Shown here: one piece after another, positions 46,321-64,000 of the stretch | Layout: each line of letters begins with the position of its first letter | How positions within the stretch are numbered: the first letter of the stretch is position 1 | DNA from: Nodosilinea sp. FACHB-141 | Lineage (GTDB): Bacteria > Cyanobacteriota > Cyanobacteriia > Phormidesmidales > Phormidesmidaceae | DNA: 64,000 nt | NCBI RefSeq assembly: GCF_014696135.1 | Contig: NZ_JACJPP010000007.1 | Location: forward strand, 682,001 to 746,000 | Direction: 5' to 3' | Translations under genes and position numbers: made by a program | The notes under the pieces: generated by a model | Databases searched by the model: none | Seen by the model: only the letters and a program-made list of their open reading frames with translations | What the model was told of the DNA's origin: nothing

Positions 46321-46581
46321 GGGCCTGGGTATGTTAGGCCATGGCCAGGGGGCGGGCATTCTGTGCAAATCGCAACTTTCTGTCCTACGACCTAAGGTAT
46401 ACGGTTAGAGTAAGAGGTGTTTAGCGGGTTCACTAATACCTCGGTGAGAGGGTTTTGCGGGGAAGGGTTTCCCTTTCGATTTGCCGCTTTTAGACGATTG
46501 AGCCTGCACAATCCCTCAACTTATCTAGGCGGCTGACTGCGCCCATTGTTTTCCCATCTGCCACGCTTGAATAGGGTTCCC

Positions 46582-49149
46582 ATGGCACCTCAGATCGATG
46601 GCCTTTCCGGGCCGGTCTTCAACCAACGCAGCATGATTACCGCGCTGTCTCTGGCTAACCAAACCAGTTCTCTTACCAACCGGGTGCGCGATCTGCCCAC
46701 CCCACAGTTCATCAGTCTGCTCGACCAAATCACGGCAGAGTTTGAGCATTTTCTGCGCGCCATCGACATGATCAACAACGAGTCGTTGGAGGTTATGCTG
46801 GAGCAGATTTTGGAGGCGTTTACCCTCAAGATCGGCCAAATTCTTCAGGCTGAGCGCACCACTATCTTCATGGTGGATCAGGAAAAGCAGGAGCTGTGGT
46901 CGAAGATTGCCCAGGGAGATGGGGAGCGATCGCTCGAAATTCGCGTGCCTATGGGCAAAGGCATTTCGGGCCACGTGGCTACCCATGTGCTGCCGCTGAA
47001 TATCCCCGACGCCTACGCGGACGATCGCTTCGACCCCACCCACGACAAAAAGACCGGCTACCGCACCCGCAGCATTCTCTGCATGCCGGTACTCAGCAAA
47101 AAGACCGACAACATTGTGGCGGTGGTGCAGCTGCTCAACAAGCTCAACCATGCTCCCTTCGACGAGCAAGACGAGCGCCACTTTAAAGAGTTTGCCGAGT
47201 CCCTGGGGGTGATTCTCGAAAGTTGTAACTCGTTCTACATCGCCGCCCGCAACCAGAAAGGCGTAGCCGCTTTGCTGAAGGCAATCTCGTCGCTAGAGCA
47301 GAGTTTGGATCTGGAGAAAACCCTGCAGTCGGTGATGGGAGAAGCCCGTCAGCTTATGCAGGCCGATCGCAGCACCCTGTGGCTGATCGACGATGAGAGC
47401 GGCGATCTGTGGTCAAAGGTGAAGTCGGGCGACGGCAAATCGCTGGTGGAGCTACGCATTCCTATCAATAGCGGCATTGTGGGCCACGTAGCCACCACGG
47501 GCGAGGTGCTCAACATCCCTGATGCCTACCAAGATCCGCGCTTTAACCCCGATGCTGACAAGCGCACCGGCTACCGCACCCGTAACATCCTCTGCATGCC
47601 CGTGTTTGATTCGGGCGGCAAGCTGATCGCCGTCACCCAGCTGATCAACAAGGCCCAGGGCACCTTCACCACCTCCGACGAAGCCTTCATGCGGGCCTTC
47701 AACATTCAGGCGGGTGTCGCCCTAGAGAACGCCAAGCTGTTTGAGAGCGTCTTGGTCGAAAAACAGTACCAAAAAGACATTCTGCAAAGCCTCTCCGATG
47801 CGGTTATTTCTACCGATATGGAGGGGCGAATCATCACCATTAACGATGCCGCCCTACAGCTAATTGGCTGCCCCGAGGACACTGACCATAGCCGCACCAT
47901 TCGCGATCGCTGGTGCGCTGCCCTGCTCCACCGCCCGGTGTGGGAGGCGATCCCCATTGAGAGCCTGCGGTTTCGCCTCGAAGACAGCCTCGGCCAAGGA
48001 GCGCGCCACTACGTGCCAGAGCAGAGTTTGCGGGTGGCGATCGCCCCTGGTCCCGGCACTGAGCTAGACCCGATCTCAACGCTGGCTCTGCCCGACAGCG
48101 ACAATCCTGCCCTCTACCGACCTTGGGGCGATCCGGCCGCAACCCCGGTACCCCAAGAGGTGGTGCAGATTTTCGAGCGCAGCATCAATCTCACCGTTAA
48201 TCCCTTGACTAACCCCGAGGGCGGCGTGCTGGGCGGCCTGCTCGTGCTCGAAGACATCAGCCAAGAAAAGCGGATGAAGAGCACTCTCTACCGCTACATG
48301 ACCCCCGGTGTTGCCGAGCGGGTCATGGCCCTGGGCGACGATCTGCTGATGAAAGGCGAGCGCAAAGATGTCACCGTGCTCTTCTCCGATATTCGCGGCT
48401 ACACCACCCTGACCGAAGACCTGGAAGCCGACAAAGTCGTCGAAATGCTCAACGCCTACTTCGAAACCATGGTGGAGTCGGTGTTCCATTTCGAGGGCAC
48501 CCTCGATAAGTTCATTGGCGACGCGCTGATGGCGGTATTTGGTGCGCCTTTGCCCCTAACTAACCACGCCTGGGCTGCTGTGCAAAGCGCCCTCGACATG
48601 CGGCGACGGCTGGCCAAGTTTAACAACGAGCGCGGTGCCCTAGGGCAACCCAAAATTCGCATTGGCATTGGCGTCAGCTCCGGCGAAGTTGTCTCGGGCA
48701 ACATTGGCTCCCAGCGCAAAATGGAGTACACCGTGATCGGTGACGGGGTCAATCTCAGCTCCCGCTTAGAGGGGGTGACCAAGGAGTATGGCTGCGACAT
48801 TGTGATCAGCGAGTACACCTATGCCCTCTGCGCCGACAGAATTTGGGCCCGCGAGCTAGACCGCACCCAGGTTAAGGGCAAACAGCGCGCCGTTGGTATC
48901 TACGAACTCATCGACCAGCGCGATGCCCCGCTCACCGCCGATACCGAAGCCTTTCTCGACCTCTATGCCCAGGCCCGCAGCGCCTATACGGCTATGCAGT
49001 TTGAGCAAGCGCTGCGCCTATTTGAGCAGGCCCAGCAGATGCGTCCTAAGGACAAAGCCGTGACTGTGCACCTGAGCCGCGCCCGGCAATACCTAATGCA
49101 GCCGCCCCCCGAAGACTGGGATGGGGTCTATGTCATGACGACAAAGTAG
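46582..49149 (+). CDS. Adenylate cyclase with two GAF domains and PAS (CyaB1/CyaB2-like)
   Basis: The 855-residue multi-domain cyclase makes cAMP. GAF-A is about residues 67-215 and GAF-B about 240-395, each with an NKFDE-type motif (NKLNHAPFDEQDE; NKAQGTFTTSDE) that marks cyclic-nucleotide-binding GAFs. A PAS domain follows at about 405-560. The class III catalytic domain is about 596-780: FSDIRGYTTL and the substrate-recognition Lys in KFIGDALMAVFG. A Thr in EYTVIGDGVNLSSR suits adenine specificity, and a short TPR-like tail follows. Architecture and length match Anabaena CyaB1 (as I recall, 859 residues). The start is ATG 46582, 12 codons inside a longer TTG frame. Confidence 0.92.
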   Translation: MAPQIDGLSGPVFNQRSMITALSLANQTSSLTNRVRDLPTPQFISLLDQITAEFEHFLRAIDMINNESLEVMLEQILEAFTLKIGQILQAERTTIFMVDQEKQELWSKIAQGDGERSLEIRVPMGKGISGHVATHVLPLNIPDAYADDRFDPTHDKKTGYRTRSILCMPVLSKKTDNIVAVVQLLNKLNHAPFDEQDERHFKEFAESLGVILESCNSFYIAARNQKGVAALLKAISSLEQSLDLEKTLQSVMGEARQLMQADRSTLWLIDDESGDLWSKVKSGDGKSLVELRIPINSGIVGHVATTGEVLNIPDAYQDPRFNPDADKRTGYRTRNILCMPVFDSGGKLIAVTQLINKAQGTFTTSDEAFMRAFNIQAGVALENAKLFESVLVEKQYQKDILQSLSDAVISTDMEGRIITINDAALQLIGCPEDTDHSRTIRDRWCAALLHRPVWEAIPIESLRFRLEDSLGQGARHYVPEQSLRVAIAPGPGTELDPISTLALPDSDNPALYRPWGDPAATPVPQEVVQIFERSINLTVNPLTNPEGGVLGGLLVLEDISQEKRMKSTLYRYMTPGVAERVMALGDDLLMKGERKDVTVLFSDIRGYTTLTEDLEADKVVEMLNAYFETMVESVFHFEGTLDKFIGDALMAVFGAPLPLTNHAWAAVQSALDMRRRLAKFNNERGALGQPKIRIGIGVSSGEVVSGNIGSQRKMEYTVIGDGVNLSSRLEGVTKEYGCDIVISEYTYALCADRIWARELDRTQVKGKQRAVGIYELIDQRDAPLTADTEAFLDLYAQARSAYTAMQFEQALRLFEQAQQMRPKDKAVTVHLSRARQYLMQPPPEDWDGVYVMTTK

Positions 49150-49155
49150 CGAACA

Positions 49156-49217
49156 GGCCGTCGGTGCATCGGTTTGAGCCATGGTAGAACCAGGGCCAAA
49201 CCGATGCACCGACGGCC
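49156..49217. repeat. 62-bp near-perfect palindrome, possible terminator or hairpin
   Basis: The outer arms 49156-49176 and 49197-49217 are perfect over 21 bp. Inward, AGCCATGGT (49177-49185) pairs with ACCAGGGC (49189-49196) except for one mismatch and one bulge, leaving a 3-nt loop (AGA). It starts 6 bp after the cyclase stop. No T-tract follows. Confidence 0.85.
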
Positions 49218-49344
49218 ATCACCCGGCATCTGACTCAGCCCATCTATGGGAGCCTATCTATCGAAGAAGGAGCAAACCCGGTAGGATGGGGGTTGTGTTC
49301 AAAACGAACACTTTTAGGTCGTTCTGTCGCCGATGAGCCCACGC

Positions 49345-50289
49345 ATGTCTCTGTTCGACTGGTTTGCCAATCGCCGTAAGTCAGGTCCCATTAGCGAAGA
49401 CCGCCAGGAGCGAGAAATTGCCGATGGTCTCTGGACGAAGTGTGAGCACTGCGACGTCCTCACCTACACCAAAGATTTGCGCACCAACCAGTGGGTCTGT
49501 AGCGACTGTGGTCACCACCACCGCATCTTCAGCGACGAGCGCATTCGCCAGCTAATCGACGCTAACACCTGGCAGCCCCTCGACACCCACATTCAGCCTC
49601 AAGATCCGCTCAAGTTTAAGGATCGCAAGGGCTACGGCGATCGCCTGCGCGATACCCAGGCCAAAACCAAACTCACCGACGCTGTGCAAACCGGCCTAGG
49701 CGAGCTAGATGGCCTGCCCGTCGCCCTCGGCGTCATGGACTTTCGCTTTATGGGCGGCAGCATGGGCTCGGTAGTCGGCGAAAAACTCACCCGCATGATC
49801 GAGCGCGGCACCGCCACTAACCGACCGGTGATCATCGTCTGTGCCTCCGGTGGAGCCCGTATGCAGGAGGGCATGCTTAGCCTGATGCAGATGGCCAAAA
49901 TTTCGGGCGCGCTCCAGCAGCACCAGGCCGCTAAACTGCTCTACATGCCGGTGCTCACCCACCCCACCACTGGGGGCGTCACCGCCAGCTTTGCCATGCT
50001 GGGCGACATCATTTTGGCTGAGCCTAAGGCCACCATCGGCTTTGCCGGTCGCCGCGTCGTCGAGCAAACCCTGCGTGAAAAACTGCCCGACAATTTTCAA
50101 ACTGCCGAATACCTGCGCGAACACGGCTTTGTCGACTCGATTGTGCCGCGCACCCAGCTCAAGCAGACCTTGGCTCAGTTGATTCGTCTGCACCAGCCGG
50201 TTGCTGCCCCCGCTGCTGTTGAGAACCATACCCCCTGGACCAATGGCCTCAATGCCGCAGAGCCAACCCATATTGGCGTCGATTTATAA
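49345..50289 (+). CDS. accD: Acetyl-CoA carboxylase carboxyltransferase subunit beta
   Basis: AccD transfers the carboxyl group from biotin to acetyl-CoA with AccA, the first step of fatty acid synthesis. The 314-residue product has an N-terminal four-Cys zinc finger (C33, C36, C52 and C55), then [24 protein letters not shown] and [18 protein letters not shown] of the crotonase-type oxyanion site. I start at ATG 49345, giving [12 protein letters not shown], the usual cyanobacterial N-terminus; the frame opens four codons earlier. Confidence 0.95.
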
Positions 50290-57940: not shown

Positions 57941-58030
57941 ATCAACAAAATACAGCGGTGGCCCCTGCGCTTAGGATACAAATCCTGACTACTGGCAAAA
58001 ACTGAGGCAGCGCCTTGACAGATAGCTATT

Positions 58031-58070
58031 GCTTCAAGGGGTGAGGCTAGATGTCCTCACCCCTTGAAGC
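58031..58070. terminator. Bidirectional hairpin between gap1 and the PPP phosphatase gene
   Basis: The 16-bp perfect inverted repeat has an 8-nt loop (CTAGATGT). It is about 90 bp after gap1 and 65 bp after the end of the convergent phosphatase gene. T-tracts are lacking on both sides, so it is a hairpin with a likely but unproven terminator role. Confidence 0.65.
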
Positions 58071-60449: not shown

Positions 60450-63400
60450 ATGACAACCGCTCAAACCCTCACTGAGACCAATAGCTTCGACCTGAAGCAA
60501 CTGCTTAAAGTTTTGACTGAAGTGAAGAAAGGAAACTTCTCAGTGCGAATGCCGGTTGATCAGACGGGTATCGCAGGAAAAGTTGCCGATACGCTCAATG
60601 ACATCATTGACAAGAACGAGCAGATCACCACTGAGCTAGAGCGGATCAGTGGAGTGGTGGGGAAAGAGGGTAAGACGAATGAACGAGCTTCGTTGGGTGG
60701 AGCAAAAGGCTCGTGGAAAGCCTGTGAAGGGTCAATCAACACGCTGATTGTGGATTTAGTGCAGCCGATGGCGGCGATTACACGGGTGATTCGATCTGTG
60801 GCCAATGGTGACCTGTCGCAGGCGATCGCAACGGAGATTGAAGGGCGATCGCTGCAAGGGGAGTTTCTGCAAACGGCACAAATCGTTAACACGATGGTGT
60901 CCCAGCTTCAGTCCTTTGCTTCTGAGGTGACGCGGGTAGCGCGGGAAGTGGGAACTGAAGGTAAGTTGGGCGTGCAGGCCGAAGTAAAAGGGGTGGCCGG
61001 CACCTGGAAGGATTTGACCGATAACGTCAACTCGATGGCGGGGAACCTGACGGCGCAGGTGCGGAACATTGCCGAAGTGACGACCGCTGTAGCCAATGGC
61101 GACCTATCCAAGAAAATTACGGTGGATGTTAAAGGCGAAATTCTCGACCTGAAAAGCACCATCAACATCATGGTGGATCAGCTCAACTCCTTTGCCTCTG
61201 AGGTAACGCGGGTAGCGCGTGAGGTGGGAACCGAAGGAAAATTGGGCGTGCAGGCGCAGGTGCCAGGGGTAGCGGGCACCTGGAAGGATTTGACCGACTC
61301 CGTGAACTCCATGGCCGGTAACCTGACGGCGCAGGTGCGGAACATTGCCGAAGTGACGACGGCCGTGGCAAACGGCGACCTATCCAAGAAGATTACGGTA
61401 GACGTAAAAGGTGAAATTCTCGATCTGAAAAGCACCATTAACACAATGGTGGATCAACTCAACTCCTTTGCTTCGGAAGTAACCCGGGTGGCGCGAGAAG
61501 TAGGCGCTGAGGGTAAGTTGGGCGGACAGGCAGAGGTGCGCGGCGTGGCTGGCACCTGGAAAGACTTGACCGACTCAGTAAACTTCATGGCTGGTAACTT
61601 GACTGGCCAGGTGCGAAACATTGCCGAAGTGGCAACGGCGATCGCCAACGGCGACCTATCCCGCAAAATCACGGTCGATGTCAAAGGTGAAATTCTGGAG
61701 CTGAAGAACACCGTCAACACAATGGTGGATCAGCTGAATTCCTTTGCCTCTGAGGTGACGCGGGTGGCGCGGGAGGTGGGCACCGAAGGAAAACTGGGCG
61801 TGCAGGCGGAAGTAAAAGGGGTGGCCGGCACCTGGAAAGACCTGACCGACAACGTGAACCTGATGGCTGGCAATTTGACCGGGCAGGTACGAAACATTGC
61901 TGAGGTGGCAACGGCGATCGCTAACGGCGACCTGTCCCGCAAAATCACGGTCGATGTCAAAGGTGAGATTCTGGAGCTAAAAAACACCGTCAACACGATG
62001 GTGGATCAGCTGAACTCCTTTGCCTCGGAGGTGACACGGGTAGCGCGGGAAGTGGGAGCTGATGGAAAACTGGGCGGGCAGGCGCAAGTGCGTGGGGTTG
62101 CCGGCACCTGGAAGGATTTGACTGACTCGGTAAACTTCATGGCGGGCAGTTTGACCGCGCAGGTGCGGAATATCGCCGAAGTCACAACGGCGGTGGCGAA
62201 CGGTGACCTGTCTAAAAAGATCACGGTGGATGTTAAGGGCGAAATTCTCGACCTGAAAAGCACCATCAACATCATGGTGGATCAACTTAACTCCTTTGCC
62301 TCTGAGGTAACGCGGGTAGCGCGGGAAGTGGGAACCGAAGGAAAACTGGGCGTACAGGCCGAGGTGCGCGGTGTTGCCGGCACCTGGAAGGATTTGACCG
62401 ACTCGGTAAACTCGATGGCGGGTAACCTGACGGCGCAGGTGCGGAATATTGCCGATGTGACAACCGCTGTGGCGAACGGCGATCTGTCTAAGAAGATCAC
62501 GGTGGATGTTAAAGGTGAAATTCTGGAACTGAAGAACACCATCAACACCATGGTGGATCAACTCAGTTCCTTTGCCTCTGAGGTAACACGGGTCGCACGG
62601 GAAGTAGGCACCGAAGGGAAACTGGGCGTGCAGGCGGAAGTTCCTGGCGTTGCCGGCACCTGGAAAGACCTGACCGACAATGTGAACTCGATGGCCGGCA
62701 ACCTGACCGGGCAGGTGCGAAACATTGCTGATGTGGCAACAGCGATCGCCACCGGCGACCTGTCCAAGAAGATTACCGTGCAGGTGAAAGGTGAAATCTT
62801 AGAGCTGAAAAACACCATTAACATCATGGTGGACCAGCTCAGCTCCTTTGCCTCTGAGGTAACGCGGGTGGCACGGGAAGTGGGGGCCGAAGGCAAACTG
62901 GGGGTGCAGGCTGACGTCCGCGGCGTTGCTGGCACCTGGAAAGATCTCACCGATTCTGTAAACTTTATGGCCGGCAGTTTGACGGCGCAGGTGCGGAACA
63001 TCGCGGCCGTGACGACGGCCGTAGCCAATGGCGACCTGTCCAAGAAAATCACGGTGGATGTCAAAGGCGAAATTTTAGAGCTGAAAAACACCGTCAATAC
63101 GATGGTGGATCAGTTAAACTCCTTTGCCTCGGAAGTAACGCGGGTGGCGCGGGAAGTGGGCGCCGAAGGGAAGTTGGGCGTACAGGCGCAAGTTCCTGGT
63201 GTGGCTGGCACCTGGAAAGATCTGACCGACTCGGTAAACTTCATGGCGGGTAGTTTGACGGCGCAGGTGCGGAACATTGCCGAAGTGACAACGGCGGTGG
63301 CAAACGGCGATCTCTCCAAGAAGATCACGGTAGACGTAAAGGGTGAAATTCTCGACCTCAAAAGCACCATCAACATCATGGTGGATCAGCTCAACTCCTT

Positions 63401-64000
63401 CGCCTCTGAGGTAACGCGGGTGGCGCGGGAGGTGGGAACCGAAGGCAAATTGGGTGTACAGGCGCAGGTGTCGGGTGTTGCCGGGACCTGGAAAGATTTG
63501 ACCGATTCGGTAAACTCGATGGCGGGCAATCTGACGGCGCAGGTGCGGAACATTGCCGAAGTCTCGACTGCGATCGCCAACGGCGACCTGTCCAAGAAAA
63601 TTACCGTAGATGTGCGCGGTGAGATCTTTGAACTGAAAAATACCGTCAACACGATGGTGGATCAGCTGAGTTCCTTTGCCTCCGAGGTAACGCGGGTAGC
63701 GCGGGAAGTGGGCACCGAAGGAAAACTGGGCGGTCAAGCCCAGGTGATTGGCGTAGCGGGCATCTGGAAAGACCTGACCGACAACGTAAACTCAATGGCT
63801 GGCAACCTGACGGCGCAGGTCCGAGGTATCGCTAAAGTCGTGACTGCCGTAGCCAACGGCAACCTGAAACAGAAGTTGATGCTGGATGCCAAAGGGGAAA
63901 TTGAAACCCTAGCAGACACGATCAACGAGATGATCGACACTCTGGCAACCTTCGCCGACCAGGTGACAACCGTAGCGCGGGAAGTAGGAATCGAAGGAAA
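60450..64000 (+). CDS. Poly-HAMP signalling protein (likely sensor histidine kinase), 5' part; continues past window
   Basis: At least 1183 codons are open to the window end. There is no signal peptide and no membrane helix at [19 protein letters not shown], so it looks cytosolic. After a leading HAMP-like part come at least eleven near-identical 92-residue units (60912-63947), each with VARVG-like [11 protein letters not shown](T/A)[16 protein letters not shown] and [17 protein letters not shown], the two-HAMP unit known from group III kinases such as Nik1/Os-1. The eleventh unit diverges ([20 protein letters not shown]) as in the last repeat before the output domain. A kinase or receiver is expected downstream but is not visible. 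Confidence 0.82.
60912..63947. repeat. Tandem 276-bp repeats (11 complete units) coding for HAMP modules
   Basis: Units begin at 60912, 61188, 61464, 61740, 62016, 62292, 62568, 62844, 63120, 63396 and 63672, an exact 276-bp period with no indels. A twelfth starts at 63948. Nucleotide identity between units looks high, with variation mainly at third codon positions. Units 3 and 4 share [20 protein letters not shown], while others have [20 protein letters not shown], giving subgroups. Open frames on the opposite strand repeat with the same period and are shadows. Confidence 0.9.

What the first reader, a model, noticed from the sequence alone, without database searches (positions are those of the whole stretch)
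49156..49217. 62-bp hairpin right after the adenylate cyclase gene with no U-tract
The 21-bp perfect outer arms plus an inner stem leave a 3-nt loop, so nearly the whole element folds on itself. That is much longer than needed for termination, and the flanking T tract is absent. It could be an mRNA-stabilising 3' structure, a DNA cruciform site, or a repeat-family member.
Basis: seen in the sequence. Interest (0 to 1): 0.5.

Follow-up and report, generated by a model that had tools for sequence, protein, structure and literature searches.

The report
Hairpin made by replication template switch
A long perfect DNA hairpin behind a cyanobacterial gene is most likely a recent copying accident in which replication jumped between strands, flipped the middle of a weak hairpin and made its two arms identical; loop flips also turn up at other hairpins compared with a sister genome.

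Summary
Window 49156-49217 has 21-bp perfect arms around a 20-nt centre that forms an inner stem with a 3-nt loop; it starts 6 nt after the cyclase stop codon and has no U-tract. It is single copy, not a repeat-family member.

Relatives explain it. In the sister genome (96% identical in the flanking gene sequence used) and in four further relatives whose spacer aligns, the spacer folds only weakly and the 20-nt centre is the reverse complement of the window's: 15-19 of 20 matches inverted, 5-7 direct. The window's left arm is a new copy of its right arm. One inter-strand template switch at an ancestral quasi-palindrome explains both (9 edits against 21 to the sister).

Loop inversion recurs: against the sister, 10 of 66 orientation-informative inverted repeats are flipped, with 0 of 319 control segments. 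Flips are commoner with longer arms, but weakly so once coding repeats are set aside.

The mechanism is known from yeast and rRNA genes, and chloroplast DNA shows similar loop inversions. RNA function is not shown; the hairpin's strength is not conserved. A new member of a known kind.

The parts
49156..49176 (+). left arm (21 nt); derived, a new reverse-complement copy of the right arm
   Evidence: L010, L041, G004 and G017 carry GGCYGCAAMCT-type sequence here instead
49177..49196 (+). 20-nt centre, inverted relative to the five relatives compared; inner stem GCC/GGC + TGGT/ACCA with loop AGA
   Evidence: 19/20 match to the reverse complement of the sister's segment, 7/20 direct
49197..49217 (+). 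right arm (21 nt); colinear with relatives, 4 differences from the sister genome (counted by eye)
49161..49204 (-). stretch best explained as copied from the opposite strand (44 nt, against the sister); switch order 1-3-4-2
   Evidence: 4 edits in the inverted piece, 9 in all, against 21 for linear alignment
46546..49149 (+). upstream gene: GAF-GAF-PAS-nucleotide cyclase
49333..50289 (+). downstream gene with carboxyl transferase domain; accD (acetyl-CoA carboxylase beta) is my naming
49263..49332 (+). conserved stretch before accD (promoter/leader by position), not touched by the event
   Evidence: 94-100% identity in 5 relatives

Best explanation
The hairpin is the scar of one replication template switch. 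The ancestor had a weak quasi-palindrome in this spacer. On the window's branch the polymerase, having copied up to the left arm, jumped to the complementary strand at the right arm, copied back through the right arm, the centre and the inner edge of the left arm, then returned to its own template in the right arm, where CAAAYC-type sequence fits both places. This rewrote the left arm as a perfect partner of the right arm and inverted the 20-nt centre in one step. The copied template lies ahead of the departure point, read from either direction, so the switch was between strands rather than a snap-back on the nascent strand. Shown: the window's state, the relatives' state and the branch of the change. 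Inferred: the switch itself, its being one step, and the strand. The resulting RNA hairpin is tolerated and may protect the cyclase mRNA 3' end, but nothing tested says it was selected.
For: Orthologous spacers in the sister (L010), L041, G004, G017 and G019 hold the centre in the opposite orientation (inverted 19, 18, 18, 15, 15 of 20; direct 7, 6, 7, 5, 5). Tree: window and L010 are sisters (100/99) in a 100/100 clade with G004, G017 and G019, so the change is on the window's branch (L041 not in the tree). BLAST scores the element 67.1 bits inverted and 42.8 direct on the sister spacer. Template-switch alignment 9 edits, linear 21, to the sister; 28/37, 40/49, 27/37 and 32/41 to L041, G017, G004 and G019, with the same point order in 4 of 5. 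0 of 200 dinucleotide shuffles reach 9 edits; best 23. Loop flips are recurrent: 10 of 80 mapped inverted repeats (40 direct, 16 identical and informative, 4 identical uninformative, 10 undecided), against 0 of 319 non-palindromic controls, 219 of them not identical. Decided repeats flipped: 5 of 11 at arms 14+, 3 of 12 at 12-13, 2 of 43 at 10-11 (Fisher p 0.002 for 12+ against 10-11). The yeast REG2 event, arm conversion plus spacer inversion, is of the same kind (PMC8604942 section 6).
Against: The right arm differs from the sister at 4 of 21 sites while the next 45 nt are 98% identical, so extra changes before the switch, or a second event, are needed. The drop in edits (12) is not exceptional by itself: shuffles reach 14 and ordinary orthologous segments 14 when short inverted pieces are allowed. 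The arm-length trend is confounded: the 10 flips are all intergenic and 25 of 56 unflipped repeats are coding by a crude ORF rule; with intergenic repeats only it is 8 of 19 against 2 of 22, p 0.026, and p 0.053 without the focal repeat. In the rRNA study, compensatory change together with loop inversion was not enriched over simulation (6 cases, ns), though loop inversion alone was (PMC8794818). Only assemblies were seen, so an artefact is not formally excluded.
Confidence: 0.8

Rival explanations
1. Two or more separate events: quasi-palindrome correction of the left arm first, then inversion of the centre between the now perfect arms (or the reverse order).
For: Loop flips between good arms are seen at other repeats between these genomes; the right arm's 4 differences ask for more than one change.
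Against: Needs more events; no intermediate among the relatives examined.
Confidence: 0.12
2. A functional RNA element: a 3' barrier to exonucleases or a U-tract-less terminator of the cyclase mRNA, kept by selection. This is about present use and can be true together with the mutational origin.
For: Sits 6 nt after the stop codon with -54.5 kcal/mol; cyanobacteria lack Rho and many 3' ends in S. elongatus are not canonical terminators (PMC13289151 abstract and passages). A weaker inner hairpin exists in L010 and L041.
Against: Strength is not conserved (-29.3 to -13.6 in five relatives); G010 and G020 have spacers of 109 and 117 nt without the segment, against 183 (by eye). In S. elongatus only 75 of 163 U-tract-less defined ends have strong upstream structure.
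Confidence: 0.2
3. A member of a dispersed palindromic repeat family (REP, MITE-like).
For: Long perfect palindromes of this size often are (recalled); a different hairpin follows the homologous cyclase gene in L060 and L061.
Against: No second copy in the 5.9-Mb assembly, nor in 56 other genomes beyond the sister's ortholog, plasmids or phages.
Confidence: 0.02
4. A recombinase-controlled invertible switch (phase variation).
For: The centre is inverted between genomes and flanked by inverted repeats.
Against: The arms are not perfect in the five relatives compared; a 20-bp centre is very short for recombinase synapsis (recalled); flips also occur at other, unlike repeats. No invertase gene was searched for.
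Confidence: 0.02
5. Assembly or amplification artefact (fold-back chimera).
For: Reads were not available.
Against: A simple fold-back chimera would not return to the original strand; nine other flips turn up in the same comparison, and in four of five looked at a third genome also shows the orientation opposite to the window's genome.
Confidence: 0.03

Closest known systems
Inverted-repeat arm homogenisation with spacer inversion by intermolecular template switching, yeast REG2 (PMC8604942)
   Same: Imperfect repeat becomes perfect and its spacer is inverted in one event
   Different: Here bacterial and intergenic, with 21-bp arms and a 20-nt spacer against 16 and 5
Template-switch mutations creating RNA hairpins and loop inversions in rRNA genes (PMC8794818)
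   Same: Makes stems and inverted loops; bacterial rRNA loop inversions are shown
   Different: Here in a 3' intergenic spacer; polarity from outgroups, without full ancestral reconstruction
Hairpin-associated inversions of chloroplast DNA, e.g. trnH-psbA (PMC2903610; Kelchner and Wendel 1996 seen only as a reference there)
   Same: Inversion of the loop between hairpin arms in non-coding DNA, of similar size (25-27 bp with at least 18-bp arms)
   Different: Chloroplast; there the arms are kept while the loop flips, here an arm was converted too
Rho-independent (intrinsic) terminator
   Same: GC-rich hairpin after a gene
   Different: No U-tract, longer stem

Membership tests
Template-switch mutation with arm conversion and spacer inversion | ancestral imperfect inverted repeat at the site | tested here: met
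   imperfect hairpins in L010 and L041, weaker folds in G004, G017, G019
Template-switch mutation with arm conversion and spacer inversion | derived arms perfect, one arm copied from the other | tested here: met
   21/21; left arm replaces the relatives' sequence, right arm colinear
Template-switch mutation with arm conversion and spacer inversion | spacer inverted relative to outgroups | tested here: met
   15-19 of 20 inverted against 5-7 direct in five relatives; tree for four of them
Template-switch mutation with arm conversion and spacer inversion | one event explains the cluster more cheaply than linear change | tested here: met
   9 against 21 edits; the limits of this statistic are
Template-switch mutation with arm conversion and spacer inversion | polymerase strand exchange observed | not testable with these tools
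   needs a reporter experiment
Intrinsic terminator | GC-rich hairpin followed by a U-tract | tested here: not met
   hairpin yes; tails ATCACCCGGC and TGTTCGCTAC; the scan finds none at this site
REP/MITE-like repeat family | several dispersed copies | tested here: not met
   single copy
Known Rfam RNA family | match at gathering score | tested here: not met
   only a sub-threshold miRNA-model match on the - strand, 24.9 against 70 bits
Invertible DNA switch (inverton) | both orientations within one culture, recombinase | not tested
   no reads; no invertase search made

The most novel reading that the evidence does not exclude
In these cyanobacteria inter-strand template switching at intergenic palindromes, many of them at gene 3' ends, is a leading force of intergenic evolution: it flips hairpin loops repeatedly, within about 5% divergence and with reversals, the more so the longer the arms, and now and then turns a weak quasi-palindrome into a long perfect hairpin, so supplying raw 3'-end structures in bacteria without Rho. 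It would be the free-living counterpart of the small hairpin inversions of chloroplast DNA.
Probability: 0.45. Interest if true: 0.6.

Novelty: new member of a known kind. Interest (0 to 1): 0.42.

Why it matters
It shows, with a before and an after state, how a striking RNA-like hairpin can appear without selection, and warns against reading long perfect hairpins as regulatory elements. The rate seen here (10 of 66 informative repeats flipped between two genomes about 95% identical where measured) would make the process measurable in a photosynthetic bacterium, and such flips mislead ordinary alignment of intergenic DNA.

Tried and rejected
Repeat family, plasmid or phage origin: rejected. 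Two of the four weak places in other genomes were read; both lie in long open frames (601 and 1005 codons) and are taken as chance; the other two were not read. Rfam: nothing above threshold. Intrinsic terminator: no U-tract.

The first control for the template-switch alignment used the gain in edits with inverted pieces as short as 8 nt; it did not discriminate (110 ordinary segments reached 14, 60 mono-shuffled hairpins 12, against 12 for the real one). It was replaced by a minimum piece of 30 nt and the absolute cost (focal 9 edits; shuffles 23 or more, though their gain still reaches 14; best gain 9 among the 150 most divergent of 823 real segments). Shuffles destroy homology, so the orientation test of the centre and the non-palindrome controls carry more weight. 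The segments folded were cut by hand.

An earlier survey with a 0.02 margin gave 7 of 55; the final one uses 0.05 and more sequence. In it 15 of 95 repeats could not be mapped and 10 of the mapped were undecided; one flip is weak (598584: 0.81 inverted, 0.73 direct) and two have 4-nt spacers. The reverse direction gave 7 of 77 mapped, controls 0 of 327. The arm-length trend weakens with intergenic repeats only. Third genomes at five other flips: at 677136 G017, G004 and G019 have the orientation opposite to the window's genome, G010 scores slightly the other way (33 direct, 25 inverted), G020 is weak; at 615469 G017 is opposite, G020 scores 32 direct, 24 inverted, the rest undecided; at 452860 G004, G020 and G019 are opposite, G017, G010 and G012 undecided; at 515551 G017 and G004 are opposite, G020 agrees with the window's genome, G019, G010, G012 and G011 undecided; at 740031 only the sister, of 16 loci scanned, has the hairpin.

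Full report
OBSERVATION. The element at 49156-49217 is as described: 21-bp perfect arms, 20-nt centre with an inner stem and a 3-nt loop, 6 nt after the stop of a GAF/PAS nucleotide cyclase, no U-tract on either strand. It is beyond chance: fold z -7.7; no arm above 13 bp in 3 x 464 kb of Markov-1 sequence. It has the longest arms in 464 kb of this genome, though the sister genome has longer ones elsewhere.

NOT A REPEAT. In its own genome the only match with E below 0.4, besides itself, is itself on the other strand. Among 56 other genomes the only strong match is the orthologous spacer of G008; places in three others stay at E 9e-5 to 8e-3, and the two read lie inside long open frames. No match at E 0.01 in plasmid or phage collections.

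WHAT RELATIVES SHOW. Of the 29 relatives' accD loci read (L010-L038), 17 (L010-L026) have the cyclase upstream of accD within the fetched stretch. Only the sister G008, G004, G017, G019 and the named record L041 have a spacer in which I could align the hairpin stretch; the others differ by eye. G008 is colinear, with identities of 93.8-96.4% over 14 of the stretches compared (blocks within the window 91-95%, leaving aside the tandem-repeat self-matches) and 96.0% in the cyclase 3' part plus accD. Its spacer has a 59-nt imperfect palindrome where the window has the 62-nt perfect one. The centre GCCCTGGTTCTGCCATGGCT of G008 is the reverse complement of the window's centre at 19 of 20 positions and matches directly at 7. 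L041, G004, G017 and G019 agree with G008 (18, 18, 15, 15 inverted; 6, 7, 5, 5 direct). The window branches with G008 at 100/99 inside a 100/100 clade with G004, G017 and G019. So the inversion and the replacement of the left arm happened on the window's branch. In L010, L041, G004 and G017 the left arm begins GGCYGCAAMCT; in the window it is an exact complement of the right arm.

MECHANISM. A four-point template-switch alignment to the G008 spacer needs 9 edits (2 before, 4 in a 44-nt inverted piece, 3 after) against 21 for a linear alignment; the points lie in the order 1-3-4-2, as they do for L041, G017 and G019 but not for G004. By the rule given in PMC7954356 (passages), a point 2 ahead of point 1 excludes a switch within the nascent strand; I find the same when the order is read from the other direction, so an inter-strand switch is inferred. 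PMC8604942 (abstract, sections 3 and 6, passages) describes this for yeast: spacer inversion arises when the first switch is intermolecular, and in REG2 arm conversion and spacer inversion came together. PMC8794818 (passages) reports template switches that make stems and inverted loops in rRNA genes, bacterial loop inversions included; there loop inversion alone was enriched over simulation, loop inversion with compensatory change (6 cases) was not.

HOW GENERAL. In 612 kb of this genome against 579 kb of the sister, 95 inverted repeats with arms of 10 or more and spacers up to 40 were found; 80 mapped. Of these 20 were identical (16 informative for orientation), 40 matched better directly, 10 better inverted, 10 were undecided. 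Of 319 mapped control segments of the same sizes, 219 not identical, none matched better inverted (Fisher p 1e-7 for 10 of 60 non-identical repeats against 0 of 219). The reverse direction gave 7 inverted of 77 mapped, controls 0 of 327. Decided repeats flipped in 5 of 11 with arms 14+, 3 of 12 with 12-13, 2 of 43 with 10-11. The 10 flips are intergenic by a crude ORF rule, and 25 of the 56 unflipped repeats are coding; among intergenic repeats alone the trend is 8 of 19 (arms 12+) against 2 of 22 (p 0.026; p 0.053 without the focal repeat). At four of five other flips examined in further genomes at least one relative has the orientation opposite to the window's genome; at one (515551) another relative shares it, which suggests reversal. 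Chloroplast spacers show similar hairpin-loop inversions (PMC2903610 passages: 25-27 bp between arms of at least 18 bp).

FUNCTION. The hairpin's fold energy is -54.5 kcal/mol against -29.3, -20.0, -15.2, -15.5 and -13.6 in L010, L041, G004, G017 and G019. By linear alignment the hairpin stretch is 39-60% identical to theirs, while the 70 nt before accD are 94-100% identical. Nothing here points to selection on the hairpin. A passive effect on the mRNA end is possible: PMC13289151 (abstract and passages) reports that most transcription units in S. elongatus do not end at known terminators and that 75 of 163 U-tract-less defined ends have strong upstream structure.

NOVELTY. The kind of event is known. 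Of my searches of the open library, two name cyanobacteria together with template switching and hairpins; they list 2 and 1 papers, of general subject by title, which I did not read. PMC8604942 mentions an earlier proteobacterial study, which I did not read either. Subscription papers are not held, so absence from print is not established. I file this as a new member of a known kind, with a recurrence rate that deserves a proper survey.

Noticed in passing
window 58031-58070: A second hairpin in the window (16-bp arms, 8-nt spacer), 90 nt after a gene that looks like GAPDH by eye, has its loop exactly inverted in the sister genome.
   Followed up: partly
L139:15551-15587 (G000:C7:515551): Loop orientation agrees with G020 but is opposite in G008, G017 and G004, suggesting flip and flip-back within the genus.
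   Followed up: partly
window 49295-49311: A GTGTTC-N5-GAACAC palindrome in the accD leader, followed by TTTT and preceded by a TAGGAT box, is kept (with variants such as GTGTTC/GGACAC that still pair as RNA) in 17 of 18 loci; operator or leader hairpin unknown.
   Followed up: partly
window 57948-58061: Part of a dispersed repeat of about 110 bp (70-80% identity) with copies at other places of this genome and of several relatives; it runs into the left part of the 58031 hairpin.
   Followed up: no
window 60450-63998: ORF open at the window edge made of many similar repeats of about 92 aa ([11 protein letters not shown]...[22 protein letters not shown]), HAMP-like by eye.
   Followed up: no
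L060 and L061, just after the cyclase stop: More distant Leptolyngbya relatives carry another perfect hairpin about 10 nt after the homologous cyclase gene; its arms differ between the two (TAGAGGCGTTCC against TGGAGACGTTCC) with both sides changed together.
   Followed up: no
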